A model generated the notes under the pieces. It ran no database searches. It was not told the DNA's origin and was given only the letters and a program-made list of their open reading frames with translations. Positions 2,843-60,627 of a stretch of DNA of 64,000 bases are shown here, one piece after another. Position 1 is the first letter of the stretch, and each line of letters starts with the position of its first letter. Source of the stretch: Pseudovirgaria hyperparasitica (lineage: Eukaryota; Ascomycota; Dothideomycetes; Acrospermales; Acrospermaceae); assembly GCF_010093815.1 (NCBI RefSeq), contig NW_022985577.1, forward strand, positions 109,804 through 173,803. The letters are read 5' to 3'. Made by a program: the position numbers and the translations under genes.

Positions 2843-3552
2843 TTAGCTTCTCCGTGCCTTCGCCTGTGATCGGCTCTTTGATCTCTCCTTGTGCCTCGTT
2901 ATCTTGCGCTCCGCTTTGCTCTCATATCGAAACTTAGGCTTGGCTTTCTTTGCCTTCTCCTTTGTAGGCTTGTCTTTGGTCCATACTCGCTTCTTCAAAT
3001 CCTCCCCGACCTCGTGTTTGGCTGTAGTAGATATTCTATCGTCGTGTTGATCTCCAGGCTCGATGTCCACGTTAAACATGCCATCCCTCGTGATATTCAC
3101 AGCCTCGACCTGGACTGTGATGTATTTGTCTTCATCAATGTACTCGTCTTCACGGGACATAGGTACATCGTCTCCAAAGCCATTCCAATCTCGATCCTCA
3201 TTCTGGCTGTCTCCCGATTCATACTCATCTGATGGATCGCCATTCACTTTCCTGAGTGCTGTGTTGACCTCGTCAACATGTTTCTCCAAGTCTTCCTTTC
3301 TTTGTTTCCGGAGCTGTGGTACAGACGTCGTCAGCGTGACCATTCCTAATGCAAAATAGGACATACCTTTGCTCTCTCAGCGATTTTCTCCAGTCGCTCT
3401 TTCTCAATAGCAAGTTCCTGGGCATGCTTTATCCTCGCCTGTTTGCGTTTGTGGAATCCGGTGAGATAATCTTCGCGGGCAGCGAAGTCAAAAGACACCT
3501 CGTCAACTGATCTGAAATGAAGCTTCTTATGCCGCTTCGGTACAGGACCCAT
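2843..3552 (-). CDS. Rrp17/Nop25 (NOL12) family nucleolar rRNA-processing protein
   Basis: Predicted nucleolar protein of the Nop25/NOL12 family; the yeast member Rrp17 is a 5'-3' exonuclease needed for pre-60S maturation. Exons are 3552-3367 and 3313-2843; the 53-nt intron (3366-3314) has GTATGT and CAG ends and is in phase 0. The product is 218 residues, normal for the family. The family block is clear at the N-terminus: VSFDFAAREDYLTGFHKRKQ, followed by a long charged helix with ERLEKIAERAK spliced to LRKQRKEDLEKHVDEVNTAL. The middle (residues ~95-145) is acidic, and the C-terminal ~45 residues are very Lys/Arg-rich, as expected of a nucleolar localisation and RNA-binding tail. The gene's start is only about 50-100 bp from the RIP-mutated block, so its promoter must be short or lie in AT-rich DNA. 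Confidence 0.92.
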
Positions 3553-14251: not shown

Positions 14252-14492
14252 TATAAGAATTATAGACGTAGAATAGTAGTCTAATAGATTATAGAAGAAT
14301 TTAGAAATATATTTAAAAGGGTAGTCTACTCTTATAATAAGGTTAATTTCTAAAGAGTAGAAGTTAAGTATATATAGTCTACTTATATAGTACTATCGCT
14401 TAATCTAGCTAACTTAATCTAGATCTATCTATTATAGAACTATACTAGACTATAGTAGTCTAGTTAAGTCTATTCTAGTATTAGTTCTAATA
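14252..14492 (-). repeat. LTR of A2
   Basis: Aligns end to end with the two 240-bp LTRs of A (37,918 and 50,984), with RIP-type differences. Confidence 0.85.
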
Positions 14493-15049
14493 ATATTCTT
14501 CTTCTTTTTATACTTTACTCTAAAGTACTTAACTATATATAAATCTATAATTCTAGAAGTATTATATTTATATATATATCTAATTAAACCTATATAATAT
14601 TATTAATAGCCTTTATATTAGTAAACTTAAAACTCTAGTTTACTTTTATTAACTTATATATACGCTTATCTCTTACTTTCTAGCTATTACCTTAGAGATA
14701 GCTCTATAGATTATCTAACTACTATATTAACTAAGCTTATATTTAGTTCTCTTATTCTAAATTTTCTTCTTTAGTATATCTATCTTACTCTTAAGATAAG
14801 TTATTAATTTATATACTATCTCCTTTAGTTTAGGTCTATTTAGATCTAGAGTAGTCTATTCTTATTAGAGCTAGTTCTATATAATCTATTCGCGTTATTA
14901 TAGTTACTAATTTAGCTTTCTTAATCGCCCTTAAGACTAAATAAGTATTCTATTCTTAGATCTCTAGCTAATATATATATATAGATACCTAATACTAGTT
15001 CTATTTCTAAGTCTATCTTCTTCTCTTATAAGACTTACTCTAAAGAGAT

Positions 15050-16450
15050 TATCTCTACTTTAGCTATACTAGCTAAAAAGTCTACTTATTATAGTAGTAT
15101 AAAGGCGTACTCTAAGTTAGAGAAGAAGGTAGATAAGACTACTACTACTATTACTACTAAGGTAGCTACTAGTTACTCTAATCTAGATAAACCTAGTACT
15201 AGTAGTATAGAAGAAGTAGTTATAAAGCCTACTTATATCTACTCGCGCTATCTATCTATTCTATCTTCTCTAGAGAATAAAGAAGATCTTATTATAGATA
15301 ATAATTAAGAGTTTACGCCCTTACCGCCCCGCTCTAGATACTATTTCTCTTTTTAGTCTAATATAGACTAGTTTAGTTACTCTAGGCCCTTTTAGAATCT
15401 TACTATTTATTCTAAGTCTAGCCCTTCTAATAATAAGATCTAGATTACTAAGAATACTAAATATAATTATAGTTTATACTATAGGAAAATAGTAAACTAT
15501 AGTTTAATATACTTTAAGTATATTAAGACTTATATAACTAGCTCTAAGTATCTTTTCTACTCTAACTCTAGTATTAGCTACTACTCTACTAATTATAATA
15601 GATTTATATATCTAATCTTTAAACTATCTACTTACTACTACTACTATACTATCCTTAGTAAAGTTTATCTTTAGATTAGTCTATTAGACTATTTTAGTCT
15701 AGGGTAATCTAAAGTTATCTATACTAATATATTTTTAGATTTCTATTTATATATAAGATATATATAATAATCTTTATATCTATAAGACTCTTAGTAGTTC
15801 TAGTAGTTATCTAGCTTCTATATATAGGGAGTTTAGAGAGTACTATAAGCTCTTTCTAGAGATTATTAAAGTATAAGTTTAGAAACTATTAATTATAATT
15901 AACCTTAGCTTATAATTTTTAGTTACTATAAGATTTCTAGTACTTAGACTATCTATTCTAGAGAATTAGTTTTAGCTACTAAGACTATAGAAGAGATTTA
16001 TAGTATTTCTTTCTATCTAACTTATACTACTAATAGATCTTATAAGAGATCTACTAGCTCTCTCTCTAAGTTACCTTATAAGAGAGTATATATTCTATTC
16101 TAGATTATTCTAGATTATATTAGCTAACTTTAGATCTAGTTACTCTACTCTAGTATATAGTTCTCTTTCTACTAGACTCTAGTTAATTAGATAGCTACTC
16201 TAGAGAATAAGGTATCTAATCTCTACTACTATATTATCTATCTAGATTAGTTAGTTTACTCTAAAGAGAAGAATAAAATAAAGAAGTAGCTCTATAGTTC
16301 TATTTACTAGGGTTTCTATATAGTATATATTAGCTCTATCTATCTAGTTTCTATTTATTTTAGTTCTTTTTAGACCGTTTAGATATCTATCTACTAGTTT
16401 CCTAGTAATTTAATTCTTAACTTAATAATATTATATACGCTCTTATTTAT
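15050..16450 (+). pseudogene. Antisense ORF remnant of A2
   Basis: Counterpart of the frame at 38,642-40,060 of A. Recognisable pieces include KEDLIIDNN and FTPLPPRS around 15,270-15,340. It has many TAG/TAA codons at positions that are Gln or other codons in the less mutated copy. Function unknown. Confidence 0.55.
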
Positions 16451-16691
16451 TCTATAACTATTAAATTCTAGGTTCTAATTTCCTTTAAGTTACTTAAATA
16501 TAGATATTATATATAAGTTAGTTTATTTCTCTAAATTATATTAGAGTATCTAAACTAGTAGCCTAGTAGTTATTAGTTTAGGTACTCTAACTTTTTATAT
16601 TATATATTATAAGTTTAATTCTATAGTAGGGTATCTTTTTAGATTCTTAGTTCTATATTCTTCTTATATATAATAGTCTATATTAGTCTAT

Positions 16692-17064
16692 TGTGGTGAG
16701 CTATCGCCACGTGTGTCCCTTTTTATAAATGGCTATGTTCTTAGTATAGTAGTCGCGACGAACTCACAAGTATCTCTCCTAGGTATTATGAGTTCTCTTT
16801 AAACGCACGACTTCTTATTAGTTCTCTTTTACGATAGGACGGGTCTATATAATACTCTTAATCAATTCTTTAATAGCTAAGCCTAATAATTAATACCTAT
16901 AGAGGCCCATGAACGTAAGAAAAGATTAAATTATTAAATATTAGTAATGGGGGAAGCGTGCCGAGTAGAATAACCGAGGAAAACGCCCTCCTTAAATATA
17001 TAATGAAGCCATGTAATCGAGCTAGGGATATATACATATGGGGCTATAGGAGCGGCCTTCTATA
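16692..17064 (-). repeat. 3' LTR of element C
   Basis: 373 bp, beginning TGTGGTGAGC on the plus strand. Compared with the other LTR, the differences I could find by eye are nearly all C/T or G/A transitions, as expected of RIP after insertion. Confidence 0.93.
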
Positions 17065-17211
17065 TATACCTCCCCGGCCCATAGAACTACTACCCTTAGT
17101 AGTATAGTAACCGTGTAAGAAACCGTGTAAAGAACGCCTAAAAGAAAGACCTTAATATAAATAAAATGCGCCTCTAGTAAATCTCTCGGCGCGGGTAAAC
17201 CTTAGCCCGGA

Positions 17212-17268: not shown

Positions 17269-20200
17269 TTAGTACTCGAGGTCGCGAGCCAGCTCCTAAA
17301 GAATCGTGTCGCTTATCTTAGAGAGGTTAGATTCCTCCTCGTCGGATAGTTCGTTAGGCCTCTCCTATCTATAGAAGTTCTCTTTAACGTTATCTAGGCC
17401 CGTATTAGGCTCGAATTTCTTAAAATTAATTAGCCGCTTAGCGGCGCGCGCCTCGTTAAATTCCTTCTAGAATAACCTATCCCTATAGACTAGCTTTTTC
17501 TACCTTACTATTTTCTTAAAGGTCTCTATAAATACCCTCGAGCCCTCCTTAAACCAGGCGTCTACCTTAGCTTTAAGTTATTAAGGACTTACGTTAAGCC
17601 ACGTAGCTACCTCTTCTTTTACCTTCTAGCTATCCTATCTTTTACGGCCGACTAATATATTACTAACGGCGTTAAAACTCGGGAGTTAAACTACGGCTAG
17701 GAAGGTAAAAGGAATCGCGCTATATTTATTAGAAAATCCCGACGGAGACGTGGGTCCCGGAGTTAAATTTCTATGAGCTACTATAAGTTGTTCCTATATA
17801 CCCATTTTAGGTACTTCTATTATTATATGATTAGGGCTAATCGCGATATACCATGGAAGCATCGTGCGTCTTCCACCCTTTACGGGACCCTAGGCGCCGT
17901 GTATTATTAGTGGGCTAGAGATACGCACTTTAAGGGACTGGTAGGGGACCGGAATAAAGGGACTAAATCGTTTCCTATCGTCCGTATTATAGATCTTATC
18001 ATTAATAGCCGTGATTATACCGTTTCGATTAACCCCCTCGCGGAGCTTAGCCTTTAACTACTATTCGTTTAAGAACTTATAGAAGCGGGGAACGATTATA
18101 GTATAGTCGTTACTTCGTTCGTCGTCGAGACTAATACTCCCCTAGATTATATTAAACCCGTGTCTATTACTAGGATCGAGGATTTAATTAATAGCGTTAT
18201 CGAGATACTTAAAACCCGTCTTATCGCCCCTATTCTAGGACTTCGTATAGTACGGGTACGAGATTAGATAGTGGTTAAGATCGGGCCGAAGAGCGATATA
18301 GGTGAGCTAGTAAAGTAGGTATTACCTAATAAACTATTAGATATAGAAGTAGTATATAGTTCGTAGCTAGCCGTAGTTCGATTTCTTATTAAACATGCGC
18401 TAGTAGTACTTATATATATTAAATTCATCCCTCGCGAGTTCTAGGATACTCTTATTAAGTATAGAGGTCGTCTTTTTAAGTAGCTCGAAGAGCCCTTTAA
18501 TATTAATACTTCCAGTACATTCCCACTCGTCGAAGAGTTACCTACCTATTCTACCATCCTCCTTCTAAATTACAAATGCGATACTAGTAAGAATGGTTTT
18601 AATATTAATAACTTACTTCGGGGTCTCTAGGGCCTAGTAACGATAGATATCTAATGCCTCTATCGGATAAGGTGGCCGCGCGTACTTCGCGAACTAGGTA
18701 TAGCGGCCCTTATAAACTTTAAGGGCCCCCACGTTATCTCTAAACTTATATACTATTTTAAGTCTCGCTACTAGGTTTAAGTAGGACACGCTAACGAGTA
18801 TATTATTCTTTCTAGCCACGTCTTAGTAATACTTATAGTAGACTTTATACGGAATAGCCATGTTACCTATCTACGCTTTCTAGCGTACTAGTAGGGCCAT
18901 TCCCTTAATACTCGTGAAATTCTTCTTTAATGATATAGCTACCTTAAAAGTCTTCGTTACTAAAGGCGCGTATTAACACTTCTTAGGCTCGTCCTCTTCC
19001 TTAACCGATACTATCGTCTTAGAGTATAAACTAAGAATAACCAGGGATTATCGTGTAGGCGCCCCTAGTAATTACTAAGGGCCGGTAGATAAGGCACGTC
19101 CGCGAGTAGGTTTTATCGGCGTGGCTATAATAGATACTAAAGAGGTTCTCGCATGGCCTAGTAAGGGACGTTTACTAGTAGTAGTAGGAGAAATACTTAC
19201 TTCGAACGGACGACTAGCTTTAAAAAGATAATATACTACTAAACTAGAAGGCGTGCTTCGTGGAGGGGACTTTACCGCGGGCATTACCTACGCTGGTTTT
19301 AGTAATGGTAAGGTCTAAGGCGGAGGCGATGCACTTATCTCTTTAATTTATAGGTAGTATTTAACGGGCCTATGAACCATTCTACTTATCCGTAACTATT
19401 AACTAGCGGGGATAATAAGTCCCGTCTCATTATAGAACGTTAGTTTATTTTATCGGCTAGGGTAGTTCGAGAGTTACTAGAGAGATAGACTATCCTCGTT
19501 ACTATCGCTAGCTAGGGCGGTATCGATATTAGAGCTCTAAAGATATACCTTGATTCCTCTTCCCTTCTATCCCTGGCCGATTCAGGACTATAGGGATACG
19601 TTTAACTAGTTCCTCGCTCTCGCCTATGTCCGTACTCGTGAGAGCGCTACTAGCTTTTCTATAAAGTTCTATATTTACTAGAGCTATCCGAGGGCGGATT
19701 AGAGTAACTAGCTATCGTTATTAGGGAGGTCTTTTCGCTAGTTTTATAGGATTATATTTTTAGCTTTTAGGATGCGGGAGTTAGTATCTCTTCCATAACG
19801 AATTATCTCGTGGACTTCTTTCGGAATAGAGGAGTTAATCTTTACCTTACTATACCCTATTACGGCTCCTACTTCCTAGAAGAGGTTAACTATACTACTT
19901 AAGAGCTATTCTATAAGGCTAGTAATATAAAGGAGATTATTAAACGTGTCTAGAATATAGTCCTATCGCTCTTACGGGTCCTAGATGGCGATAATTCGGT
20001 TAATAGTAGACTTATTTACTTCCGTAGCTTCTATAGCCTATCTATATAGAGTAGTAGATGGCCTTAATACCACGATAGCCGTCGATAGCCCTACTTTAGT
20101 ACTTATAACTCTTAACTAGGACCGCGTCTATCTTATTAGTGCTTAACGATCTTATAACTCTTCACGGGTAGGCGTTTTCTTTTTCGGCGGGGCTATTATT

Positions 20201-20300
20201 ATTATCGGTTCTATTAGCGAGTTACGTTCTAAGGAGAGGTAGTTAAGCGAGGCGGAAGTAGAGGAGGAGGTTTTATTAATTAAGGAGGTATAGAGAGGTA
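17269..20300 (-). pseudogene. Third ORF of element C: 2-oxoglutarate/Fe(II) dioxygenase-like protein with HTH-like N-terminus, inactivated by RIP
   Basis: One minus-strand frame of about 1000 codons follows pol and ends at TAA 17,271-17,269. Frame checks at 20,160, 20,004, 19,284, 18,207, 17,901 and 17,610 all agree, and the breaks are TAG/TAA of RIP type. The N-terminal part has a basic stretch PPKKKTPTR (~20,185-20,160) and an HTH-like segment AIEATEVNKSTINRII. The C-terminal half reads RPDLNHYLISYPYYTK, then DKTGFKYLDNAIN (18,225-18,190), ISLDDERSND, DDRKRFSPFIPVPY, PLIIHGA (His codon 17,901), GGRRTMLPWYIAIS and KEEVATWLNVSPQQLKAKVD. This is the layout HxD, ~100 residues, H, ~10 residues, R of the double-stranded beta-helix 2OG-Fe(II) oxygenases, with the first His now Tyr (CAT to TAT, a RIP change). 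I recall similar large uncharacterised fungal proteins; a link to the TET/JBP group is possible but unproven. No start ATG survives. Confidence 0.65.
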
Positions 20301-20966
20301 TAAGAGGGAAGAGTTATATACTATCTTAAGTTCTCTTTTTATGCCTCCTCGAATGCCGGGTATATAGTGATTTTTATAAATAATCCTTACTAACGGCCAT
20401 AGGCCCGTATACGTGTCGAATCTATAAATAAATATATACTAGGTACATAGAAAATCTATAAATAAATGTATCTACCGGGTATATGGCGGAATCTATGAAT
20501 AAATAGATACCGGGTATATTCTTATCCTTATAAGACTTTCTATAAGTATCTTTTTCTTCTATACCTCCTCCTTCTTTTCTTCCTTATTAGTTCCTAACGG
20601 GGCCCGTTCCATAGTAACGAAATAGGCCTTCGATAGATAGACTTCGATTACACGACCGGCTTTAATATATAGTAGGTAGAATTCGCGTAAACGCTATTAT
20701 GTCTTCTTTCGAGCATTACTTACTTTAATAATAAGTTTTATCATTTTATAGTAATGATAGGGTTTATCATCCTCTTTCGATAATAGAGTTTATTATTATA
20801 AGACTACTTTTATAAGCATCCCTTCTCTCCTTAAAAAAACTTCTATCCCCTAGAAGAAGATGTTAATTCTAGGGAAACGTAAATATTCCTCTCTATTGAA
20901 GTCTTACGGAGTAGGAATTACCACTTCCACCCGGGTTCGTGTAGCGTCGTCGAGGTATTCCGTAAG

Positions 20967-23900
20967 TTATTTATAATAGTTTTTCTTATCGCTACTCTCC
21001 TTATTTTCCTTAGTAATTCTTCTAATTAGTAGTCGCGAGGGCTCGTTATAACTCTTATTACTCGCATTTCTTATAAAATATTTCTTTAACCTATGGCTAG
21101 GAAACGTCCCTCTAAGCATGGCTCTATTAAGCTCCGCGAGCTTATAAGTATAATTAAACACGGACTAGATTCTATATAGCCCCCTCTAATGCTACCTTAG
21201 CTTCCGCCCTATATCCTTCTATTACTACGAGTCGTATAGGAGGATAATTATATCGACTAGTAACGACTCTTAACGAAGGTAATAGTCATTATTCTATGTC
21301 TCTCTTGATTCCTTACGCGTTCGTATCGCGTAGGCATGGGCCTCCTTAAGATCCTCGGATCTTCTCTTAAGTTATCTAGCTCGAAGAGCGAGTAAGTTGG
21401 ACGTTAATCGCACCTCGTCCTAAGGGAGCATTCGGAGCGACTCGAATTCGACTTCGATAGGCATGATTAGTTTATAGCCGAGTATAAGGTATGTGGTACT
21501 ATACTCTATACTAGCACGTGTTATTATTCTATCTACCTAGATAACCGCATGGAGGTGGTCGGGCTAGTTCTTAAATCCGCTATTAGTTATCTTCGCGAGA
21601 GTATTAGCGAGTAGTATAAAACTTCTCTCGATAATTCTATTTACTCGGGGATTATACATAGATATAACCTTCTAATAAATTCTATAGAGTTGGAGGAGCT
21701 CCTCTATGGCACCTATATTTTCTCTACTACCGTTATAGGTGATTTTAGGAATGATTCCGTATCTATAGATCACGTTCTTAAAGAGGAACTTTACGACGAC
21801 TATGGACGTGGCCGCCGTATATACCTCCGCCTTAGTCTATCCGCTTAGCTATTCTCGTATAGATACTACTTTACTATATTCTATAGAAGGTGGTAGTATC
21901 GTTACGTCTAAGTATATTCTTTACTAAAGAATAGGCGTTATAATATAGTAGAGCCCTTTATTAAGACCTCCGAGGAGCTTACTTCGTTATTAATATTTAT
22001 TATAGGTTTTCACATGCTATCGCACGTCTCTACGCATACCTATCTACTAATACTTATCCTTAATTCTTCCGAGGGTCCCTTCGCTACCTCTATAATCTAT
22101 CTCGTTATAAGTAGTAGTAATTATACGCGCCCTAGTATTCGGATCCTTAATTACTCGTGTATATTAGCGATGCCTATCTCCTCTCCGCTAGAGTATTCGG
22201 TCACATATAAGGAACTTTAGATAGTCGGTTATAAAGGCCTTATACGCTCGGTTAGTTAGGTTAGTTAGCCTCTTAAGTATAGTAAGGTACTTCGTAATCC
22301 TCTACTATTTATTACTATATTTATCTATTAAGGGAGACTTAATGGCGGTATAGTTAAGTATCCCTATCGTGTAATCTCTCCCGCTAATAGGCTTAATTAA
22401 CGACGTCTCTAGTACGTCTATATATAGAGCCATATCCACGAACTCGTCTAGGTTAAAGGTAGAGATATCTAGTAGTTCTTCTCCTTCGTATATCCGTGAG
22501 ATACCGTCGGCGACTACGTTACGCTTCCTAGGTACGTACCTAACTATAAAGTTCTATAGCTGAATCTACGCGAGCCACCTAGTAACGAGCGCCCCTAGTA
22601 AGTTAGTTATGGTACGGTTAATTTAAGCGACTAGAGTATTCGCGTCTATTTCTATAATAAAGTGCGTACTATAGAGATATTACTAGAACTTCTATAACGC
22701 GTGGAGGAGGGCTTAGTACTCTAGTTTCACGGTGTCGTAGTTTCTCTTAGCTTTTAACCATATTCCTCTATTATACCGCGATGGCTAATGTTTACAATCC
22801 TCGTTCTCCTACATTAACGTAGCCCCCTACCTAACGTTACTAGAGTCTACTACTAGAATTATATCTCCCGTACCTATCCCGTACCGTAACATTATTAGTA
22901 CGGGAGTAGTAGTTAGAGCTATCTTTAGCGCGTCCATCGAGGTCTACTCCTTAGCTATCTACTACTAGGCCGATTTATTCTTTAATAGTATAAATAGCGG
23001 TAATATAATAACAGTGTACCCGGGGATCTATATCCGGAAATATATATAAACGCTGAGGAAGGCTCGCATATTCGTCGTGTTTTTATAGGGTTTCTAGTCC
23101 CTAATAGTAGTAACCTTTTTATTACTCGGTCGCCTCCCTTTAATGCCGTAGACGTATCCTATAATATTAGCGGCTTTAATATACTACTAAGTCTTCTTAC
23201 TACTTAGGGCGTATCTAGCGCGCTCTATATCCGTGAGAACCTTATCCACGTTAATTAAATATTCTAGAATATATCTACGAATTCTAGGTAGGGCCTCCTT
23301 AGAGTTATATTTTATTATAGGTCCTTTAATACCTAAGTTATCTAGGAATAGTAGAGCCCTCTCCGGGATATATTCTTATATAATAGTTAATATAATTCTA
23401 ACGAACTAAGCTACTAAATTAGTAGCCCCTTAAGGTAATATTATCCCATGTAGTAACCCTAGGGGCGTTATAAACCCCGTTAAGTCTCGGTAATGCTCTA
23501 CTAATAGAATCTAATCGTATCCTAAGAAGAAGTTGGTAAACGTTAAGACGGCTATCCCCGTAAAGTACTCCGAGAATTCTTTATACGAGGGCGGCGTGGC
23601 CGCATTACGAATAGTAACTCGGTTAATTTCTATTACCGAATTGATTAACCTATGATCTCGTTCCTTATTAGCTTCCTTCTTCTTTTCTATAAGAAAATAG
23701 ACGTTTTAATAAGGACTACTATAGGGCTCGAGCCTTCCGCTATTAAGACGCTCTTTTAGAATCGTGAGTACCTTCCTATAAAGGGCTCTAGGAATATTAA
23801 AGTTCTTGGCCTACTATACCTTATGTTCTACCGTTCGGATCTCCTACGGAGATGCCACCTCTTTATTAAATTTACTAAGGTATAAGAATTCCTATACTAG

Positions 23901-25779
23901 TACTTCCTTACGATATAATAAGATTATATATAGTAACTTAAGTTCCGCGGGACGTAGCTCTATTCTAATCTTTAGCTAACTTATATATAGAGGCGTTAGA
24001 CGTGTTCCTAGCGGGATAGTTACCCTTCGAGGCTCTATTAGCCTATTAAACGCGTTAAGGCCTAGGTGGACGGCTAGAAGAAGTACCTACTATACGATTA
24101 CTCGTTCACGCTAGTCTAGATACCCTAATGGATTCCTAGGGACCTTTCGGTGGGCTTCGGAGTTATCTATAGGGTGTACTTTAACTCCCTTTCTTTTATA
24201 TATGGTAGCTATACTAAATCCCTTTGATACCCCGGAAGAATACCGTCTTTAGAGGCTGGTAGAGCCTACTATAAGCTATTCTATTATCGTGCCTTATTTA
24301 TGTACGAAGGTAGCGTACCTCGCCGCCGTAACTAGGGCGGCTAAGTTATCTTTTCTCGATAACTAAGTAATATTTTTAGGCCGGATTTTCTTAGAAAGTA
24401 ACTCTATATAACTTATTTCTATATCCGTATAAAAATATATCCTATCCCCTTCGTTAGTAGGTTTACTAGACTCTATTTAGTGCGGATTATTAGTTAAGGG
24501 TAGCCCTTAACTAATAATCCGGCTTAACTCCGGCTTCTAGTAATATACTCCGCTATATAGTTAGTCTCTAGCCACGGAGTTACCCTCCTTCTCTAAGACT
24601 AGAATATACTTATCCGGACTAGTTTCGAAGGTTATACGTTCTTATCTATATACGGAGTAGACTATTAAGAGTACTTATCTAGAGGCTAACCTCTACACCG
24701 TAAGTGAGGCCTACCTAGTATATAGCTCCCCTAGGATAAGGTCATAATTAAGTTCGCTATATATGAATATCGAAGTGGCTATAATAATCCGACCTATATA
24801 GATAGAGTATTACTATACTATTCCTATGAATAGAGTACTATACTAAGTAGCGCTAACTAAACTTAAGTTCTTTATATATGGTGGAAGCGAAGATATCGCT
24901 AGCCTAAGACGCCTTATAGTATCTAGTTAAATGCTATTTATCTACGCGCTACTATTAAATAGTACTATACTAGTCGCCCTTTTAGGACTAACTTCTACGG
25001 GGTACCTCGGACACTCGGCTACTAGCCTTACTATCCCTTCCTTAAGCTAATTAATATCTTATTATATAATGGCCGTCCCTATAGCATAGAGGGGTACTAA
25101 TATGTTAAGTTTATTTATCTCGGGAGCCATAGCATGGTCGTTTCTTCCTTTCTTCTCGGCTCTCTCCTCTCGAGCCTCGCGGATCTCTCTAGCTATAAAG
25201 TCGGGGGCGCCCTTCTCGAATACCGCACGACATAAGTTACTATTAAGGCTTAATAGTTTACTAATAGTAATATTTATGGTTATCCCTAGAACGCGCACTA
25301 GCCATGCTTTACTAGCTTCTATACTTAGCCGCTATCCCTTACGTAGATAGTTATTAAGCTTAACGCCTCGGATACGTGCCTTTTAACTAGGATTTAGGCT
25401 ATCCCCTTTATCCATCTTATTCTTAGACGCTATTAGCTCTTATTTAGACGTTCCCTAGTTACTACTCTTCTTACTATCCTCCTATTCCTTAATAATCCTT
25501 ATATACTACCCTTCACGCATTCCGCGGAGATAGGCGATCTTTCTTTCCTTAGTATAATTAGGTATACTCTTCGTAATCCCCCTTCTAGATATTACGAGCA
25601 TAGCGGGCTCTTCTAGGGCTATCTCCTTATGGATATATCTATTACTAGCTACGTTAAAGCGTTCGTGGAATTCTATATATCTATCTTTCTTACTCTCGGG
25701 CGACGTGACTTCTTCTTCCGAATTACTATCCGCTAAGGCCTAGTAGGGACCCTTCATAGGTTTTATACTAATACTATAT
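20967..25779 (-). pseudogene. pol of element C (protease/RT/RNase H/integrase), RIP-inactivated
   Basis: Continues in the same frame as gag and ends with a TAA at 20,969-20,967. Reverse transcriptase motifs include LINSVIEINRVTIRNAATPP, TNFFLGYDQILLVEH, LHGIILPQGATN and FLDNLGIKGP (start 23,348); the family motif is F-x-D-D, here with the second Asp changed to Asn by RIP. This is the Gypsy subtype with FxDD and GIKGP seen in many fungi. RNase H remnants follow at ~22,900-22,500 and integrase with a C-terminal tail at ~22,000-21,000. The last 64 residues (21,161-20,967) are still open. A palindrome with an in-frame TAA sits at 24,483-24,521, between the N-terminal part and RT. Confidence 0.85.
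24483..24521. repeat. 31-nt palindrome, copy 2 (inside gag-pol of element C), arms extended to 18 bp
   Basis: Arm CGGATTATTAGTTAAGGG, centre TAG, then the exact reverse complement, 39 nt in all. The frame is the same on both sides, but every frame through the palindrome meets a stop; in the gag-pol frame it is TAA within the stem. Confidence 0.95.
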
Positions 25780-27266
25780 ACCGACACTCTCTATGAAGCG
25801 TTAATGTTTACTACGGACGTGGAAACCTTTACTCCCCCTCCGTACTAGCTTAGGCCGTTTTAAACCGTTACTATATAGTTCTAGATAGCTTATAGAGTAG
25901 CTTATGGCCCTACTAAGGAGGGTGGTAATGGGATTTCTTCTCTGTTCGCCCTAAAACGCCCTCGGAATACTCGTACCCCGTTAATATTTAGTAATCCGTC
26001 TCTAATGTATCCTACTATCTCCGGATATCTATATATTAGGTAATCTTCTCCGTACGTAATACATACGATCGGTCTTCGAGGCCTATCCTAGGCTATAACG
26101 CCTTCTTAGGAGTCTCGGGTAGAGACGTATTCTCTATTCTATGTATAATTCTATAGATAAACTTACGTTGGTTCTATAGGCATGCCTCGTACTTAGGGGT
26201 GTATTAAAAGATTTAGCCTTCGCGCCTACTAGTTAATAATAGCCGAAAGTAGCTTAGGTTCGTACTTCTTAAGGGATAGGAATAAGGGATTAGAGATAAA
26301 GTAGGACTTTATCTTAATTAACGTGAGGTCTAGTTTACTAAATCTCTCTACTATCTTGTTAAACTTATCCGATTCTAGCGCGACGTGTACTTCGACTAGA
26401 GAGAGGTAGCTAAATTTATTAGTTCTTCTTTCTTCATGTGACTACTCTTCTAAGCTAGTCTTCTTACTCCCTATCTTTGATTTATAGTATATGGCTATGG
26501 CTAGCTCTTATACGGCTAAGTACTTATTAATACGAGCTAGTTCCTTAAGTGCTCTAGCCTTTCGTAATACGAAGCTATAGATAATTACCTAGTTATAACT
26601 ATGTACTTCTATCGTGAGTTAACATTTCTCTATAGCCCGAGCCTTAAGACTATTAGGCAGCCCTTCTAGAAAGAGCTCTATTCGCGAATACGAGCTTAGA
26701 CTTTCTTTAGCCGTAAGTTTCTCCGTAATAATATAATACCAGGAGTAGTATATAGAGAGAGAGTAGGATGGGTCTACTTTAACTATTTCCATGTATTTTC
26801 GGATAAAGTAGATGGTACCTTCCTCGAGGGCGGAGTTAAATAGAGAGAATTCCTTTAATAATTCTTCACGTAGCGTGGCCTACTACTATTTCTAAAACCT
26901 ACTCATTCCTTTAATAGTAGGACGGAGATAGTCCTCGTAGTATGATGGTAGGGAGGTTATCTTCTTATTAGGCGGAACTTTATAGTTTATATATATGTCC
27001 TTATACTTCCGAAGGAAGGCCGTAATATTTATTCCTTTAAAGCGCTTAGGGGCTAGGGTAGATAGAGGTACTATCCTTCCTTATCGCGTAAATGCTACGA
27101 AGAAGTTAAGCATCTCTCTACGAGTTACTAGGTCGTTATTTTAAGCTCCTATCGCACTATTACTAGTAGTAGGTGTGCTAGTAGAGACGCTGGGGGTAAG
27201 GTTATTAGTTAAGGGATTACCTTGACTAAAGGTTAGCCCAATGCGTCTACCTATAATATCTATCAT
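25780..27266 (-). pseudogene. gag of element C, RIP-inactivated
   Basis: Starts at ATG 27,266 (MIDIIGRRIGLTFSQGN), followed by a Ser/Thr/Pro-rich stretch, a capsid-like segment (~26,950-26,500, with FLRKYKDIYI and SSYSRIELFLEGLP) and a relic of a zinc knuckle near 26,070 (CITYGEDYLIYRYPEI, with Cys and His positions partly changed to Tyr). The border to pol is set by eye. Confidence 0.7.
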
Positions 27267-27733
27267 CCCTTCTCCATGTTAATTAATCCCTTTATAAGGT
27301 AAACTATTACTATCGTCTTTATCGATATAAGGTTCACGGTATCCTACTTATGTTATTATCTTCATGTAAGGCGTTCCTAAAGTAGTATACTCGTGTAGCC
27401 GTGTTTATAAATGATAGCTATGGTAGTACTAAATAGGTTGTATTTATCGTTTTTGAACTCTTCTTTGCTACTTCATCTAGCCCTATTTTATATTCTATTC
27501 CCCTAAGATATTTTCGAGTCGTACTATCACCTATATTAGCATGCGTATACTTTTTACAGCTACTTTTAAGAGACTAGCCCCTAGCGACTCCGGACTCCCT
27601 GTTTTCCGGACTTATAGCTTCGATCTAGTAAGTCTAGACTACCTTATTAGGCACGCTATATACTTCCCCTAAGCTAGTTTCGGAGTCCTAATCTCCCCCT
27701 ATAAGTTTATAGTCCGGGTATAACCTCTAAAAT

Positions 27734-28106
27734 TATGGTAAGCTATCGCCACGTGTGTCCCTTTTTATAAATGGCTATGTTCTTAGTATAGTAGTCGCGA
27801 CGAACTCATAAGTATCTCTCCTAGGTATTATAAGTTCTCTTTAAACGCACGACTTCTTATTAGTTCTCTTTTACGATAGGACGGGTCTATATAATACTCT
27901 TAATTAATTCTTTAATAGCTAAGCCTAATAATTAATACCTATAGAGGCCCATGAACGTAAGGAAAGGTCGAATCGTCGAATATTAGTGATGGGGGAAGCG
28001 TGCCGAGTAGAATGACCGAGGAAAACGCCCTCCTTAAATATATAATGAAGCCATGTAATCGAGCTAGGGACATATACATGTAGGGCTGTAGAAGCGGCCT
28101 TCTATA
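27734..28106 (-). repeat. 5' LTR of element C
   Basis: 373 bp; starts TATGGTAAGC where the other copy has TGTGGTGAGC, and ends TTCTATA like it. CTAT follows at 28,107. Confidence 0.93.
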
Positions 28107-28244
28107 CTATTCTAGACTTTTCTATATTATTCTATTATAATATATTATATTATATATCTATAATAGTTATTTATATTTTCTTTATGTTTAGTAACTATAT
28201 ATTACTTAAATTATAGGGCTATCTTATAGAGTTTTCCTTATATA
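28107..28244 (-). mobile_element. Element A2, second part
   Basis: Continues A2 after the C insertion: 28,111-28,240 aligns with 40,355-40,485 of A, ending at the shared TATAGAGTTTTCCT. D begins at 28,245. Confidence 0.85.
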
Positions 28245-37917: not shown

Positions 37918-38157
37918 TATAAGGATTATAGACGTAGAATAGTAGTCTAACAGGTCATAGAAGGATTCGGGAATATATTTAAAAGGGTAGTCTACTCTTC
38001 TAATAAGGTTAATTTCTAAAGAGTAGGAATTAAGTGTATACGGCCTACTTATATAGTGGTCTCGCTTATTCTAGCTAGCTTACCCTAGGTCCACCTATCA
38101 CGGACCGTACTAGACCATAGTATTCTAGTTAAGTCCATCCTAGTGTTAGCCCTAATA
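37918..38157 (-). repeat. 3' LTR of element A
   Basis: 240 bp, same length as the right LTR. On the plus strand it runs from TATAAGGATTATAGACG to AGCCCTAATA. Confidence 0.9.
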
Positions 38158-38641
38158 ATATCCTTCTTCTTTTTATACTTCGCCCCGAAGTAATTAGCTA
38201 TATATAAATCCGTAATTCTATAAGCGTTATATTTATACGCGCATCTAATTAAATCTATATAACGTTATTAATAGTGTTTATATTAGTAAACTTAAGCTCT
38301 AGTTTACTTTTATTTATATACGCGCTTATCTCTTACTTTATGGCTACTACCTTAGAGGTAGCTCCGCGGGTTATATAACCGCTATATTAACTAAGCTTAT
38401 ATTTAGTTCTCTTATTCTAAATTTTCTTCTCTAGTATATCTACCTTACTCTTAAGGTAAGTCGTTAATTCGTATACTATCTCCTTTAGTTTAGATCTATT
38501 TAGGTCTAGAGTAGTCTATTTTCGTTAGAGCTAGTCCTATGTAATCTATTCGCGTTATTACGGTTACTAATTTAGCTTCTTTAATCGCCTTTAAGGCTAA
38601 ATAAGTATTCTACTCTTAGATCTCTAGCTAACGTATATATA

Positions 38642-40060
38642 TAGATATCTAATACTAGTTCTATTCCTAAGCCTACCTCCTCCTCTTATAAGACTCGCTC
38701 TAAAGAGATTATCTCTACCCCGGCCATACCGGCTAAAAAATCCACTTATTATAGTAGTATAAAGGCGCGCTCTAAGTTAGAGAAGAAGGTAGCTAAGGCT
38801 ACTACTACTATTACTACTAACGTGGCCACTAGTCGCTCTAATCTAGGTAATCCTAGTACTAGTATTACGGAAGAGGTAGCTATAAAGTCTACCTATACCT
38901 ACTCGCACCGCCTATCTACTCTACCTCCTTTAGAGGATAAAGAAGATCTTATTATAGATGATAATCGAGAGTTCACGCCTTTACCGCCTCGCTCTAAATA
39001 CCGTTCCTCTTTTTAGTCTAATATAGACTAACTTAGTCGCTCTAGATCCTTTTAGAACCTTAATATTTACTCTAAACCTAGCCCTAGTAATAATAAGGCC
39101 TGGGTCGCCGAAGATACTAAACGTAGTCGTGGTTTACGCCATAGAAAAACGGCGAACTATAGTTTAATATACTTTAAGTATATTAAGGCTTACGCTACTA
39201 GCTCTAAATATCTCTTCCGCTCTAACTCTAGTATTAGCTACTACTCTACTAACCGCGATAGGCCTATACGCCTAATCTTTAAGCTCTCTACCCGCTACCG
39301 CCGCTATACCGTCCTTAGTAAAGTTTATCTTTAGGTAAGTCTATTAGACTATTTTAGTCTAGGGTAATCTAAAGTCGTCCATGCTAATACGTTTTTAGGT
39401 TCCTATTTATATATAAGATATATATAACGATCTTCGCGTCCGCGAGACTCTCGGCAGTTCTAACAGTTATCTAGCTTCTATATATAGAGAGTTTAGAGAG
39501 CGCTATAAGCTCTTTCTAGAGGTTATTAAAGTATAAGTTTAGAAACCGTTAATTATTATTAATCTTAGCTTATAATTTTTAGTCGCCATAAGATTTCTAG
39601 CGCTTAGACTACCTATTCTAGGGAGTTGGTTTTAGCTACTAAGGCCGTAGAAGAGATTTATACTATTCCTTCCCGCCCGCCTCGTGCTACTAACGGGTCT
39701 TATAAGAGATCTACTAGTTCTCCTTCTAAGTTACCTTATAAGAGGGTATATATTCTATTCTAGATTATTCTAGACCATGTTAGCTAACTTTAGGTCTAGT
39801 TACTCTACTCTAGCGCTTAGTCGTTATCTTACTACGCTCTAACCGAGCGCGTAGTTACTCTAGAGAATAAGGTCTCTAACCTCCGTCGCTCTATTACTCG
39901 GTTAGTTTATTTACTACGCTCTAAGAGTAATAATAAGATAGAGGAGTAGCTCTATAGCTCTATTTACTAGGGTTTCTATATAGTATATATTAGCTCTATC
40001 TACCTGGTTTCTATCTATTTTAGTCCTTTTTAGACCGTTTAGATACCTATCTACTAGTTT
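38642..40060 (+). pseudogene. Antisense ORF of element A (unknown protein)
   Basis: Plus-strand frame opposite to gag-pol, between pol and the 3' LTR. The same frame is kept at 38,702, 38,822, 39,674 and 39,842, with only RIP-type TAG/TAA breaks. The N-terminal part is Ser/Thr/Lys-rich (KSTYYSSIKARSKLEKKVAK), then acidic EDKEDLIIDD and FTPLPPRSKYRSS. The middle is Arg-rich (KRSRGLRHRK, RPIRLIF). The C-terminal part has a short coiled coil (ERVVTLENKVSNLRRSITRL). An open run without stops lies at 38,822-39,016. No enzyme motif is seen; the look is of a gag- or adaptor-like protein. The frame may extend to ~40,340. The second copy (A2) keeps the same frame. Confidence 0.6.
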
Positions 40061-40479
40061 TCTAGTAATTTAATTCTTGACTTAATAATATTATATACGT
40101 TCTTATTTATTCTATAACTATTAAATTTTAGGTTCTAATTTCCTTTAAGTTACTTAAGTATAGATATCATATATAAATTAGTTTATCTCTCTAAATTATA
40201 TTAGAGCACCCGAACTAGTGGCCTAGTGGTTATTAGTTCGGGTACTCTAACCTTTTATATTATATATCACGACTTTAATTCCGTAGTAGGGTACCTTTTT
40301 AGTTTCTTAGTCCTATGTTCTTCTCGTGTATAATAGTCTATATTAGTCTATTCTAGACTTCTCTATGTTATTCTATTATAATATATTACATCACGTGCCT
40401 ATAACGGTTATTTACGTTTTCTTCGCGTTTAGTAACTATATATCGCTTGAATTATAGGGCTGCCTTATAGAGTTTTCCT

Positions 40480-41214: not shown

Positions 41215-41464
41215 TATTATACTATAATAATAATAATAATAATATTATATAACTAGGTAGAGTAGTACTCTATAGGTCTATGCCTTCTCTAGTCTAAGCT
41301 ACTATATAAGAAGAAACCCCATAGGGAAAAACTTCCTTATATCTATAACTATATCTCGTTAAACCTCTATTTCGTCTTAAGTATATAGCTATAGGGTACG
41401 CCTATTAGCCTATAGCCTATATTACCGTTATTTTACCCTTAGGTAGCACGTATAGGTGCGGAGG

Positions 41465-41495
41465 TTATTAGTTAAGGGCTGCCCTTAACTAATAA
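41465..41495. repeat. 31-nt palindrome, copy 4 (LINE E-ii, 3' side)
   Basis: Arms intact, centre CTG. Lies about 235 bp from the 3' end of the LINE and covers the ORF2 stop, as in E-iii. Confidence 0.95.
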
Positions 41496-44400
41496 TTAGG
41501 GTTCTTCTAGGGTTCTTCCGGTATATATCGGGTTACTACCGGTGTATACTAGGTCTCTTCCGGTATATATTTCCGGGTCCACTAGTACTAGAGAAGTAGT
41601 AGATATATAAGTATCTATCAGGAGACGTCCTTAGAGTACTTATTAAGCTATTATACGATATCTAAAGTCTTCGTAACGTAGATAAGCTATTACCGTTATA
41701 TATGGAGGTTAGGGTATATAGCTAGATAGTAGCGTAATATACCTCTCCAGCCGTACGCCTTATACTATAGGGAGATATTAGAAACGCCTCTCTTATAGAT
41801 ATAGTATAGGAGTCCTATAGCGCCCGTTCGGGCTTAGATAAGTATAGATACTTAGGCTTTCGTTAGCCCTTTATATATCTATTTACTTAGTTCCTTCTAT
41901 AGCCCTTAAATCTACTCTAGATATCTATTCTACTAGAAGGTCTAGTGGGCACGGAGTGTCTCTTTCTACTTATCTTAAGTCTATAACTATATATTTTTTA
42001 CGAGTTCTTAAAGGCTCTACTAGTCTAGAAGAGCGTCTGGGTTATCTCGGACTTCTTATACTACTTAGCTAGAGTCGGCTTCTATTAAGTATCTATACCG
42101 TATTCGATTCTAGCCTATATATAGGAGTACGCGGTAATATATACTAATTCATACACGTAGCGCGGTAAAAGTATATTCTACGTTTTCTATGCGTTTCTAT
42201 ACTTATTATTTAGTAAAGTATACTACCCTCTATATCTAGTAGAAGTTATATATACTTATAACGTCTATCTCGCGTCGTAGTAGTACCGTGTTAGTAGCTT
42301 TATATACGCCTAATATAAGACGGAGTATACGGTTCTATATGGATTCGAGCTTTATTCGCCTAGTCTATATAAGGGCTATATACTAGTACTCGTATCCGTA
42401 TATAAAGGCGGGTCGTACCATAGATATATATAGCTAGTATGCCTTATCCCGGGCGGTTCCCCACGTAGAGGCTATAATCCATTATATAGCGGCTTCTACC
42501 TAGAGGGCCCTAGAGACGGCGTATGCTACTTATAGTCCCTATTTAAGCTTACTATCTAGTATAACTCCGAGCGCGCGCATGCTTTATACTAGTAGTTCGT
42601 TAAATACGTCGATTCGGGGGCGTCGTTTGCCTTCCCTAGTTACCTATTTCCCTTAATAATTAATAAAGTATATGAGCTAGTATTTCTCTAGGGCGAACTT
42701 TGCTCCGTGGCGTTTTACCTACTAGAGATACCTCTTATAGTTCTATTCTAGTCGTCTATACGTTTAGTTAGTATTATTATTAATAGCTAGGAGGTATATG
42801 TTATCGGCGTATCCGACTACCTCTATATACTTTATTTCTTAAAGAAGGTCTACTATAAAGAAGATAAATAGGATCGGAGAGATAGTACTCCCTTATGGGA
42901 TACCGTATACCGTCTCTTTATATTCGCTCTAGTATCTAGAGATATATATCTAAGTTATTCTTTCTATAAGGAATAACTATATAAAGCGTATAATCCATTC
43001 TAGTATTCGTCTTATCCGGAGGTTATAAATAAGTCTTATGTAGTTTATCTTATTAAACGCTCCGGCCATATTAAGGGAGAGGAGCGATACTACCCGTCCC
43101 TATTTCTATACGGCCTAGACGACTTCGATAATATATTAGATAGCTATTATTAGGGAGCTATCTATCTTTACCTTCTGGTTCGGAGGGAGGAGATTATATT
43201 CCTATACCGCGGTACTTATCTTCTTTACTATTATAGCCTCTAGTATCTTATCTAGGTAGGAGAGAAGGGCGATTAGTCTCTATCCCTTTAGGGAGTTAGG
43301 GCTCTTTCCTAGCTTCGGGAGTATAATAGTATAGGCGACTCGAAAGCTCTAGGGGTGGTACCCCTACGTGACGTATACTTAGAATATACGAGTAATAAGC
43401 GGTAGGGTCGCTTTTATAGTGCTTTTTAGGCATCGATTTAGAATTCTATCTAGTCCGGGTGCTTTATCATTTAGAAGTATCTTAATAATATTAAGTATAT
43501 CCTCCTCCGTAACTTCTTTAGGGATATCTACTATATATAGGTATTCGGCGCCGTAAACGTCTAATAGGTCTACTAGTTCTAGGAGAGGGAATATAGCCTC
43601 CCGTAGGGCCTTAGTTTTCTTAAGGCCCGTGGAGTATATTCTCCCCTAATATATTAGGGGAGGTATAAGTAGCAGGGGTGTCGGAGTATCTACGCCCTTG
43701 GCCTATTTTACTATACGCTATAGCCCTATTACGTGTTATATCTATTAACTAGTAATTATATACTACTATTTACGCCTTTCGTTATAGAGGACTTTATCGC
43801 GTTATTATATCGCTTCCTTCTATTCTTTCTACGACTCGGGTGTTCTCGTATAGTATACGCGTCTATATAGCCTTTAGGCGTCTTATCTACTTTCCCGTAC
43901 TTAAGAAATCCCCTTTACTTCTAGGGGCCGGTATATTTAGTATAGTACGTGTTTATTTCTCGTATTCTAGTATGTTTATAGGAGTGTCTATACGGTCTAG
44001 TCTATGGCTAGGTTATTAGATATATCGACTATAGAGGGATCTAGGATCGCCGATTCTAGGTCCTTTAGATACTTTTTCTAGTTAGTATCCTTCTATATCT
44101 ATTATCCCCGTTATTTATTCGGGGTATATACGTTTATTACGGTTTCCATATATTCGTGGTCGGAATTCGTCTATATCTAGCCTAGGTAGTAGTATTAGAT
44201 CCGGTAACTAATATACTCCGTAGCGAAGGTAAGGTTAAGCATGGACCCGTCTTCGTCCTATTTATGTTTTTTCTATATAACTTATTCTATAGGTATAAGT
44301 AGATATAGGAAGTCGTGGTAGCGGGTGCGTAGTTCCCTTACTCTAAGTTCTTCTCTAACTACGGCTAGGCCTCTCTACTATTAGTAGTAGAGATTAAAGT

Positions 44401-44900
44401 CTCCTAGGAGGATATGTTACCCTAGTTCCGTAGTACCCTCGAGTATCTCGTCTAGTATAAGTATATATTATTAGTTATATATGTTATATATATATAGGGG
44501 GCCTATATCTAGTTATAGATGTAGTATTATTCTAAGGTTATCGCGCTCGGTATATAACTATAATAAGAGTAGTATTAATCTATGAATATGGAAGAGGACT
44601 CGTCTTTCTAGTCCTAGAGGGTATATAGTATGGTATCCGGGGTGTGTGGTTGGTTTACTCGTCTAGTAGTATTTATAGGGTTCCTAGATAGCGAGTATTA
44701 TAGCCCCGGTCTCTTCGAGGAGCGTCGCCTAGTTCTCTCTTTTATATTATATGTTTACCTATATAATTCGGAGTATATTCTAGTCCCTTATTAGATACTA
44801 GGGAGTATATATATCTATATGCATATTCCTTGGAGGCGCGACTATCCTCGCGCGGTAGCGGCTTTAACTATGCCTTTTAGTCGTCCTATTATCTTCGGGA
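41496..44900 (-). pseudogene. ORF2 of LINE E-ii (endonuclease and reverse transcriptase), RIP-inactivated
   Basis: Minus-strand counterpart of ORF2 in E-iii (56,970-60,347); blocks such as the RT catalytic region (~42,820-42,780) and the endonuclease region (~44,450-44,350) align as reverse complements. Stops are of RIP type. Confidence 0.75.
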
Positions 44901-46239
44901 TAGTCTACTATCCCGCCTAACTATCTTCCGGAGGGGAGGTTAGGGGTGTTATAAAGGAAGGGCTCGTGGTAGGTATTATATTTTATAACTATCTCACGCC
45001 TCTTACTTTTATTATGCGAATATATTCTATAATCTATTTATATTTTATGCACGTTAACGACTACGACGGGTGTTTCCCGTTATAGTTTAAATACTATGCT
45101 ATATCCCTATTTCTTAGTCCGTCTCCTCGCGGTTTATAAGGGCACTCCTAGATAGCGTGGTCCCTACGGTACTATCCGCACTTGGTCTTCTATAAGTACC
45201 TTTATATAGTGTGTCTATACCCTTAATAGTTAAAGTACTATATTATTATCTATACTCTATCCTATAGCTCGGCTATAAGAAGCTCTTCTTCTATTAGGAA
45301 TCCCTTCTATATAATATATTATATAAGGGCGGGGTCTCGGAGCTCCATAATTATAGTAGAGTGTTTTTTCGCCGTCGTCTTAATCGCCTATAGGTTCTTC
45401 TACCACGCTTTTACGATCTTAATCCCTAGGTATTTTCGCGTGTTAGATTATTCTATGCGTATAATATCCTCCGCTCTAATAGCCTATCCCTATACGGGTA
45501 CTATATATACTATAATTAGGTATATAGCTACCCTAATAGACGCGCTAGAGAAGATACTATCTATCGCGTTTAGATCTCGTAAGATGTTTTACTATATAGT
45601 ATTCGTTATAGTAGTAAGTACTACCCTACCTAGCGTAACTTTAGTAGCCACGACGCTCGACCATATTCCTTTCTATTTATTAATCTTATTTATAATTTCC
45701 TTTAGAGATGCCCGTTAGACCTACGCTAGCGTGTTCTTATCCTAGATTACGATACGTATACTATATACTCTATCTATAGTTCTAGTAGTCCTTAGTATGG
45801 TAGCTCCGGGTATTACTATAATCTAAGCCTATGTGTTAGGGCGCTTACCTTAGAATAGCTCTTCCTAGATTTTCCGTAGGCTAGCTTCTATTTAGTTAAG
45901 CCTACTACTAGGTTCCTCTCGTGGCGACTTTCTTTCTTCCTCTATAATTCCTCTTAGGTTCTAGATAAGGTCCCGGAATATATAAAGGAGGGTCTTCTTT
46001 CTCTTCTTAGCGTCCCTCTCTACACGTATTACCTAGTATTTAATTTTATCTAGGAGGGTCTCCCCTCTCGGGGTCCCCTCGGTCTAGGTTATCTATAGCG
46101 CTTCGTACCCTTAGTTAGTTCCTATATTTTAGATAGGTGTCTAGCTATCTATATTAATATCGCTATATAGCCGTTTCTACCGTACTAGTAGGGGTATATC
46201 CGGCGTATACCGGGGTATTATAATGCCTAAGGCCGCCAT
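44901..46239 (-). pseudogene. ORF1 of LINE E-ii, RIP-inactivated
   Basis: Begins at ATG 46,239-46,237 in the context CCATGG, 2 nt from the palindrome. Codes a helical nucleic-acid-binding ORF1 protein with a zinc knuckle near ~45,180, as in E-iii. The left border is approximate. Confidence 0.7.
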
Positions 46240-46241
46240 GG

Positions 46242-46272
46242 TTATTAGTTAAGGGTAGCCCTTAACTAATAA
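46242..46272. repeat. 31-nt palindrome, copy 5 (LINE E-ii, 5' side)
   Basis: Arms intact, centre TAG. Lies 2 nt upstream of the ORF1 ATG (46,239) on the minus strand. Confidence 0.95.
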
Positions 46273-46525
46273 AAGGGGGTCGGCGTGTCGGCGTTTATTA
46301 GATATAGTCTATGCTTATATTATCGAAGAGTCTTCGAGCGTATATATATAGTATCTCTATACGTCGGTATCGTCGTGTATTATACGCTATACGTACGCAC
46401 GTGTGTCGGAGGTTATTATACTCGGTATACTCTATCGTTTAATGTATGTAAATCGCTGTTTTACCCCGAATTGACTAGTTTGGTCCGTTAGGGTATAAGA
46501 AGTTCTAATTATTATACTATAATAA

Positions 46526-55306: not shown

Positions 55307-55563
55307 TATATAGTAAAGGGAAGAACTAACTTACTTCTTACACCCTAACGGACCAAACTAGTTAATTCGGGGTAAAACAGCGATTTATATACATTAAACG
55401 ATAGAGTATACTAAGTATAACAACCTCCGACATACGTGCGTACGTATAGTATATAATACGCGATAATACCAACGTGTAGAGAAACTATATATATACGCTT
55501 AAAGACTCTCCGATAATATAAGTATAGACTATATCTAATAAACGCCGACACGCTAACCCCCTT

Positions 55564-55594
55564 TTATTAGTTAAGGGCTACCCTTAACTAATAA
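55564..55594. repeat. 31-nt palindrome, copy 6 (LINE E-iii, 5' side)
   Basis: Arms intact, centre CTA. It ends 2 nt before the ORF1 ATG at 55,597 (CCATGG context). Confidence 0.95.
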
Positions 55595-55596
55595 CC

Positions 55597-56960: not shown

Positions 56961-56969
56961 AGGCATAGT

Positions 56970-60347: not shown

Positions 60348-60371
60348 TTAAGGGTAGCCCTTAACTAATAA
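60341..60371. repeat. 31-nt palindrome, copy 7 (LINE E-iii, 3' side)
   Basis: Arms intact, centre TAG. Its left arm supplies the ORF2 stop codon (TAG 60,345-60,347). Confidence 0.95.
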
Positions 60372-60627
60372 CCTCCGCACCTATACGTGCTACCTAAGGG
60401 TAAAATAATGGTAATATAGGCTATAGGCTAATAGGCGTACTCTATAGCTATATACTTAAGATAAAATAGAGGTTTAACGAGATATAGTTATAGATATAAG
60501 GAAGTTTTTCCCTATAGGGTTTCTTCTTATATAGTGGCTTAAACTAGAGAAGGCATAGGCCTATAGAGTACTACTCTACCTAGTTATATAATATTATTAT
60601 TATTATTATTATTATATAGTAAAGGGA

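What the first reader, a model, noticed from the sequence alone, without database searches (positions are those of the whole stretch)
17269..20300. A Gypsy retrotransposon carrying a 2OG-Fe(II) dioxygenase-like third ORF
Between the pol stop (20,967) and the 3' LTR of element C, on the same strand, one frame of about 1000 codons ends at 17,269. Its C-terminal half has the HxD ... H ... R layout of 2-oxoglutarate/Fe(II) dioxygenases: GFKYLD (His now Tyr by a C-to-T change), PLIIHGA, GGRRTMLPWY. An HTH-like segment and a basic stretch precede it. Fungal DNA transposons (KDZ) are known to travel with TET/JBP oxygenases; an LTR retrotransposon with such a cargo is not something I know of. A DNA- or RNA-base-modifying enzyme on a retroelement could serve to counter host methylation or silencing, but that is speculation.
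Basis: partly seen in the sequence, partly recalled or inferred. Interest (0 to 1): 0.86.

Follow-up and report, generated by a model that had tools for sequence, protein, structure and literature searches.

The report
Retrotransposon carrying an oxygenase gene
A mutation-riddled jumping gene in a fungus carries an extra gene for an iron-dependent oxygenase enzyme between its replication genes and its end repeat, which may have helped it escape the host's silencing, although what the enzyme acts on is unknown.

The parts
16688..16691 (.). target-site duplication CTAT (left)
   Evidence: flanks and an empty-site paralog at 40,330-40,370
16692..17064 (-). 3' LTR (~373 bp)
   Evidence: direct repeat of 27,734-28,106; 94.7% identity over 375 aligned bp; 20 transitions, 0 transversions
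17065..17090 (-). purine-rich stretch before the 3' LTR (likely polypurine tract)
   Evidence: sequence; assignment inferred
17269..20330 (-). ORF3, broken (66 stops in 992 codons); start not fixed
   Evidence: X-at-stop homology to fungal proteins; no indel inside it in 7 of 7 compared copies
17480..18570 (-). 2OG-Fe(II) oxygenase domain of ORF3 (limits approximate)
   Evidence: column mapping and fold of relative P0002
18199..18207 (-).
17899..17901 (-). distal iron-binding His column (kept)
17866..17868 (-). 2OG-binding Arg column (kept)
18829..18978 (-). columns of the CxC...CxxH zinc-like motif (mostly altered here)
20335..20966 (-). spacer between pol and ORF3; its length differs between copies
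20967..27300 (-). gag-pol frame, broken; RNase H about 23,000-22,500, integrase zinc domain about 22,150 (weak)
   Evidence: lowest stop density in one frame; RT_RNaseH 3.3e-14, Integrase_H2C2 0.0054
27734..28106 (-). 5' LTR
28107..28110 (.). target-site duplication CTAT (right)

Best explanation
Element C is a retrotransposon of Gypsy domain order with a third ORF that was probably translated on its own. ORF3 encoded a Fe(II)/2-oxoglutarate oxygenase: an N-terminal region (helical in the relative that was modelled), a CxC...CxxH zinc-like module, then a PhyH/DUF1479-like double-stranded beta-helix with an HxD...H...R active site. SHOWN: homology, motif conservation in relatives, fold of one relative, linkage to the element in dozens of copies, RIP-type inactivation after one recent burst. 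INFERRED: in the master copy it was an active enzyme that entered the nucleus and oxidised a host mark (on DNA, RNA or chromatin protein), helping the element to be transcribed or to integrate before RIP destroyed the copies. My confidence is about 0.95 that it is an element-borne gene of 2OG-oxygenase fold, 0.8 that it was catalytically active in the master, and 0.35-0.4 for the nuclear counter-silencing role.
Against: The nearest solved folds are DUF1479 proteins, whose function I could not settle, and small-molecule enzymes (GriE, ColD, proline hydroxylase H11, EctD), not nucleic-acid demethylases. No Tet_JBP or AlkB-type signature in 52 relatives. If the ORF countered RIP it failed here: all 53 scored matches hold stops. 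49 of 96 relatives lack the simple NLS pattern. The compared copies come from one burst (8 transversions in 21,210 sites), so copy number is not independent evidence for selection. Whether relatives elsewhere lie in retroelements could not be tested. Pfam gives no hit on the element's own frame, and the fold was modelled on a relative 35% identical to it over 80% of the query.
Confidence: 0.4

Rival explanations
1. ORF3 is a 2OG oxygenase that acts on protein side chains or a small molecule (as proline or ectoine hydroxylases do), for example modifying Gag, integrase or a host factor; nothing to do with methylation.
Against: The zinc-like module, the NLS-like cluster in 47 of 96 relatives and the presence on a mobile element point to a macromolecular partner, but none of these is decisive.
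Confidence: 0.3
2. ORF3 is a host PhyH-like gene captured once by chance and amplified as a passenger in one burst.
For: The compared copies are nearly free of transversions, so they descend from one recent master; linkage in many copies may then reflect one event.
Against: No intact ortholog was found in this genome: a relative's protein matches 53 scored places (of 63 candidates), each with stops, and the 6 that I read are this element. The conserved residues were kept over a long branch up to the burst, although that selection could have acted in a host before capture.
Confidence: 0.15
3. A non-catalytic role: the fold is kept as a nucleic-acid-binding or structural subunit.
Against: Iron- and 2OG-binding columns are kept in 114-122 of 123 relatives, which a dead enzyme would not need.
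Confidence: 0.08
4. An artefact: a chance reading of a RIP-degraded frame.
For: The frame is full of stops.
Against: E 2.7e-38 in the whole database; only one of six frames, and 0 of 5 shuffles, matches the relatives.
Confidence: 0.01

Closest known systems
Orchid (Phalaenopsis) Gypsy elements with an AlkB 2-ODD ORF (PMC9289625)
   Same: Gypsy-type LTR retrotransposon with a separate ORF that ends in a 2OG-Fe(II) oxygenase domain
   Different: There AlkB type with tested m6A RNA demethylase activity, 25-kb element, plant; here PhyH/DUF1479-like with a zinc-like module, 11.4-kb element, fungus, substrate unknown
Fungal DNA transposons with TET/JBP dioxygenases (PMC12730594)
   Same: Fungal mobile elements carrying a 2OG oxygenase, presumed counter-silencing
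   Different: DNA transposons and Helitrons; [quoted passage not shown] the relatives here give PhyH hits and no Tet_JBP hit
PhyH (PF05721) and DUF1479 (Gig2/YbiU) proteins
   Same: Fold and active-site layout of the C-terminal domain
   Different: Here the domain follows a zinc-like module and a long N-terminal region, on a retroelement; 13-14% identity to the DUF1479 chains
Bdelloid rotifer LTR elements with captured enzymatic ORF3s (PMC5408684, abstract seen)
   Same: Enzyme-coding third ORF beside gag and pol
   Different: GDSL esterase and DEDDy exonuclease, not an oxygenase
Boty/BcGypsy1 of Botrytis with the extra gene brtn (cited in PMC8365987, passages seen)
   Same: Fungal Gypsy element with an additional gene
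   Different: brtn is antisense according to the title of the cited paper, which I did not see; ORF3 here is sense; relation of brtn to this family not tested

Membership tests
Ty3/Gypsy LTR retrotransposon | LTR pair with target-site duplication | tested here: met
   ~373-bp LTRs, CTAT duplication, empty-site paralog
Ty3/Gypsy LTR retrotransposon | RNase H upstream of integrase | tested here: met
   RT_RNaseH 3.3e-14, then Integrase_H2C2 0.0054, the latter weak and under its cut-off
Ty3/Gypsy LTR retrotransposon | reverse transcriptase domain | tested here: inconclusive
   no Pfam hit in the RIP-degraded piece
2OG-Fe(II) oxygenase, PhyH-like | double-stranded beta-helix fold | tested here: met
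   [not shown]
2OG-Fe(II) oxygenase, PhyH-like | HxD...H iron site and Arg for 2OG | tested here: met
   H 122, D 120, H 122, R 114 of 123 relatives; the element keeps three of the four columns
2OG-Fe(II) oxygenase, PhyH-like | Pfam PF05721 over the curated cut-off | tested here: inconclusive
   3 of 8 relatives over it; 15 of 52 at E up to 0.1; element frame no hit
TET/JBP | Pfam PF12851 match | tested here: not met
   0 of 52 relatives at E up to 0.1; 0 of 2 halves of the element frame at E up to 10
TET/JBP | closest fold | tested here: inconclusive
   not among the 50 rows shown, which does not exclude it
AlkB (as in orchid Gypsy) | AlkB-type Pfam signature | tested here: not met
   no such family among the 13 listed for 52 relatives
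DUF1479 | own Pfam signature | tested here: not met
   not among the 13 families listed for 52 relatives, though closest in fold
RIP-mutated repeat | CpA/TpG depletion and transition-only divergence between copies | tested here: met
   CpA 0.22, TpG 0.21; 1,326 transitions against 8 transversions over 7 copies

The most novel reading that the evidence does not exclude
A large, undescribed family of retroelement-borne PhyH-fold oxygenases in Pezizomycotina (169 relatives found) that enter the nucleus and strip or alter a host silencing mark: an element-encoded answer to RIP, DNA methylation or heterochromatin.
Probability: 0.15. Interest if true: 0.9.

Novelty: new variant of a known kind. Interest (0 to 1): 0.7.

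Why it matters
It adds another route, beside TET/JBP on fungal DNA transposons and AlkB on orchid Gypsy elements, by which mobile elements have taken up 2OG oxygenases, here in a fungus with RIP. If relatives prove to be element-borne and to act on nucleic acids or chromatin, the question of whether transposons fight RIP and methylation with enzymes becomes directly testable. At the least it gives a candidate identity to a family of 169 or more fungal proteins that are mostly unnamed or labelled hypothetical in the listing.

Tried and rejected
Rejected: TET/JBP or AlkB identity (no Pfam hit in 52 relatives; not among the 50 fold rows, which does not exclude them); ORF3 as an extension of pol (different frame in the window; in 4 of 7 other copies the net spacer difference is not a multiple of three, in 3 of 7 it is); chance frame; an intact host ortholog in this genome (none found among 53 scored of 63 candidates; the four direct PhyH matches lie elsewhere).

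Led nowhere: no relatives in plasmid records (the DNA itself none either), in IMG/VR by two scans or in GTDB contigs; PDB by sequence gave nothing meaningful for the element or the relatives' profile; NCBIfam nothing relevant; a profile search of the protein database listed only 2 proteins, probably because its words came from the variable N-terminus. The tree does not place the element firmly: its end branch is 1.98, joined to another long row. Rfam: 0 matches. Tandem repeats in the element: 0. The Tet_JBP search of the genome is uninformative, since no control rang. Papers: of nine library searches, seven asked for extra ORFs, domains or oxygenases on retroelements, one for brtn and one for DUF1479; no listing or passage that I saw reports a PhyH-like ORF on a fungal LTR element, but many listed papers were not opened and most subscription journals are not in that library. 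PMC3248453 mentions complex fungal LTR elements with many additional domains in a supplementary figure that I could not see.

Full report
WHAT WAS CHECKED. The window lies in an unnamed 35.0-Mb genome of 59 contigs, at G000:C29:109,804-173,803. G+C in 2-kb steps runs from 49% to 21%, and the 17,269-20,967 stretch lacks CpA and TpG (observed/expected 0.22 and 0.21), the mark of RIP in filamentous ascomycetes (established knowledge). I did not identify the species.

THE ELEMENT. LTRs of about 373 bp lie at 16,692-17,064 and 27,734-28,106 (94.7% identical over 375 aligned bp). The flanks share CTAT, and a paralogous sequence at 40,330-40,370 shows the site without the insertion. One minus-strand frame from about 27,300 to 20,967 has the lowest stop density. 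Pieces of it, with X at stops, match RNase H (RT_RNaseH 3.3e-14) and, weakly, the integrase zinc domain (0.0054, under its cut-off), in Gypsy order; the reverse transcriptase piece gave no Pfam hit. The primer-binding site was not analysed.

THE THIRD ORF. No stop-free stretch of 80 aa exists in the interval; the frame holds 66 stops in 992 codons in the window copy and 65-73 in seven other copies. Read with X at stops, the C-terminal part found eight fungal proteins, best E 2.7e-38. A search with one of them (P0002) found 169 relatives, of which 120 were listed; 123 proteins were then in hand. Locally, the C-terminal half of the element's frame matches 123 of 123 (best 1.2e-84, for a set of 123), the other five frames match 0, and 5 of 5 shuffles match 0. 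These 123 were themselves found through that frame or a relative, so the six-frame contrast is the control, not the count. The N-terminal half matches 1 of 123 (5e-4).

ACTIVE SITE AND DAMAGE. In the 123 relatives the columns of HxD, the distal His and the Arg are kept in 122, 120, 122 and 114; a CxC...CxxH motif ahead of the oxygenase is kept in 110 of 110, 110 of 111, 115 of 116 and 115 of 116 that have letters there. At 66 columns conserved at 95% or more the element has the same residue at 45; 18 of the 21 others are of the kind that RIP would give, against 15% in shuffles (maximum 31%). At 85% conservation the figures are 121 columns, 76 identical, 32 of 45 RIP-type (shuffles 13%); at 70%, 185, 105, 50 of 80 (shuffles 12%). 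So the copy that spread probably had nearly all of the conserved residues.

COPIES IN THE GENOME. The DNA search scored 40 of 72 candidates and the protein search 53 of 63; the union is 57 distinct places on 26 contigs, a lower bound. All 53 scored protein matches contain stops. Of 40 listed pol copies (68 candidates), 37 have ORF3 downstream on the same strand; for the 28 with a full ORF3 match the spacing is 1,699-1,701 bp in 12, 1,724-1,727 in 15 and 1,718 in one. The other three were fetched: L023 has 3.0 kb of ORF3, L024 only about 450 bp, and L025 is interrupted by another copy. The 3' LTR, whole or in part, follows ORF3 in 14 of 14 loci that reach that far, the window copy included. Between the window copy and seven others there are 1,036 transitions in RIP context, 290 other transitions and 8 transversions in 21,210 compared sites; the LTR pair has 20 transitions and no transversion. 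These copies therefore stem from one recent burst and were mutated later; their number is not independent evidence for selection. In the same seven copies no indel lies inside ORF3, whereas 1-bp and 26-bp differences lie in the spacer at 20,335 and above. The net spacer difference is not a multiple of three in 4 of 7 copies (25, 25, 28, 1) and is one in 3 of 7 (0, 0, 27), so ORF3 was probably translated on its own rather than fused to pol; some of these indels may postdate inactivation.

HOW IT MAY WORK. In the 96 relatives with the CxC motif and at least 250 residues ahead of it, the 140 residues before the motif hold an NLS-like basic cluster in 47, against a shuffled mean of 5.4 and maximum of 10, and 2 of 96 in a control segment. 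I infer a nuclear enzyme with a zinc-like module for a partner, probably chromatin or nucleic acid, that helped the element against host silencing. The host has four places matching cytosine DNA methylases, two of them adjacent. The nearest folds are small-molecule enzymes or proteins whose function I could not settle, so a protein or metabolite substrate is a serious rival. Nothing here shows the substrate.

WHAT IS KNOWN. PMC9289625 (abstract, the results section on element structure, and discussion read) reports orchid Gypsy elements with an AlkB-type 2OG ORF and in vitro m6A RNA demethylation. [quoted passage not shown] PMC5408684 (abstract) reports enzymatic ORF3s on rotifer LTR elements. 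PMC8365987 (passages) cites an additional gene brtn on Boty, and other additional ORFs on Botrytis elements without naming a domain in the passages seen; the cited title calls brtn antisense; that paper (Zhao et al. 2011) was not seen. PMC3248453 (passages) mentions complex fungal LTR elements with many additional domains, shown in a figure not held. PMC5987419, PMC5872316 and PMC13297926 (passages) showed no such ORF. In nine library searches I saw no report of a PhyH-like ORF on a fungal LTR element.

VERDICT. A real, RIP-destroyed, element-borne gene for a PhyH/DUF1479-fold 2OG oxygenase with a zinc-like module; a new variant of a known kind (2OG oxygenases on mobile elements). Function inferred, not shown. 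The main gap is the genomic context of the relatives, which these tools could not reach.

Noticed in passing
window 14,252-16,692 and 28,107-28,238 against 37,918-40,479: Element C is nested in another repeat whose paralog in the same window gives the empty site.
   Followed up: partly
window 41,215-46,503 and 55,333-60,621: A 5.3-kb inverted repeat pair, 92% complementary, probably two copies of another element in opposite orientation.
   Followed up: no
window 2,843-3,364 (minus): An ordinary host gene (or part of one) matching Nop25 (nucleolar protein 12, E 8.3e-13) in the G+C-richer end of the window.
   Followed up: yes
window 20,335-20,967 and copies: Two spacing classes between pol and ORF3 (12 and 15 of 28 copies) suggest two subfamilies that spread together.
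   Followed up: partly
G000:C1:295,241-299,115: Two direct PhyH-family matches near each other on opposite strands, one with five stops, perhaps a host gene and a decayed neighbour.
   Followed up: no
G000:C20:121,867-122,771 and C4:139,280-140,446: Matches to cytosine DNA methylase, candidates for the host's RIP/methylation enzymes.
   Followed up: no
[not shown]
   Followed up: no
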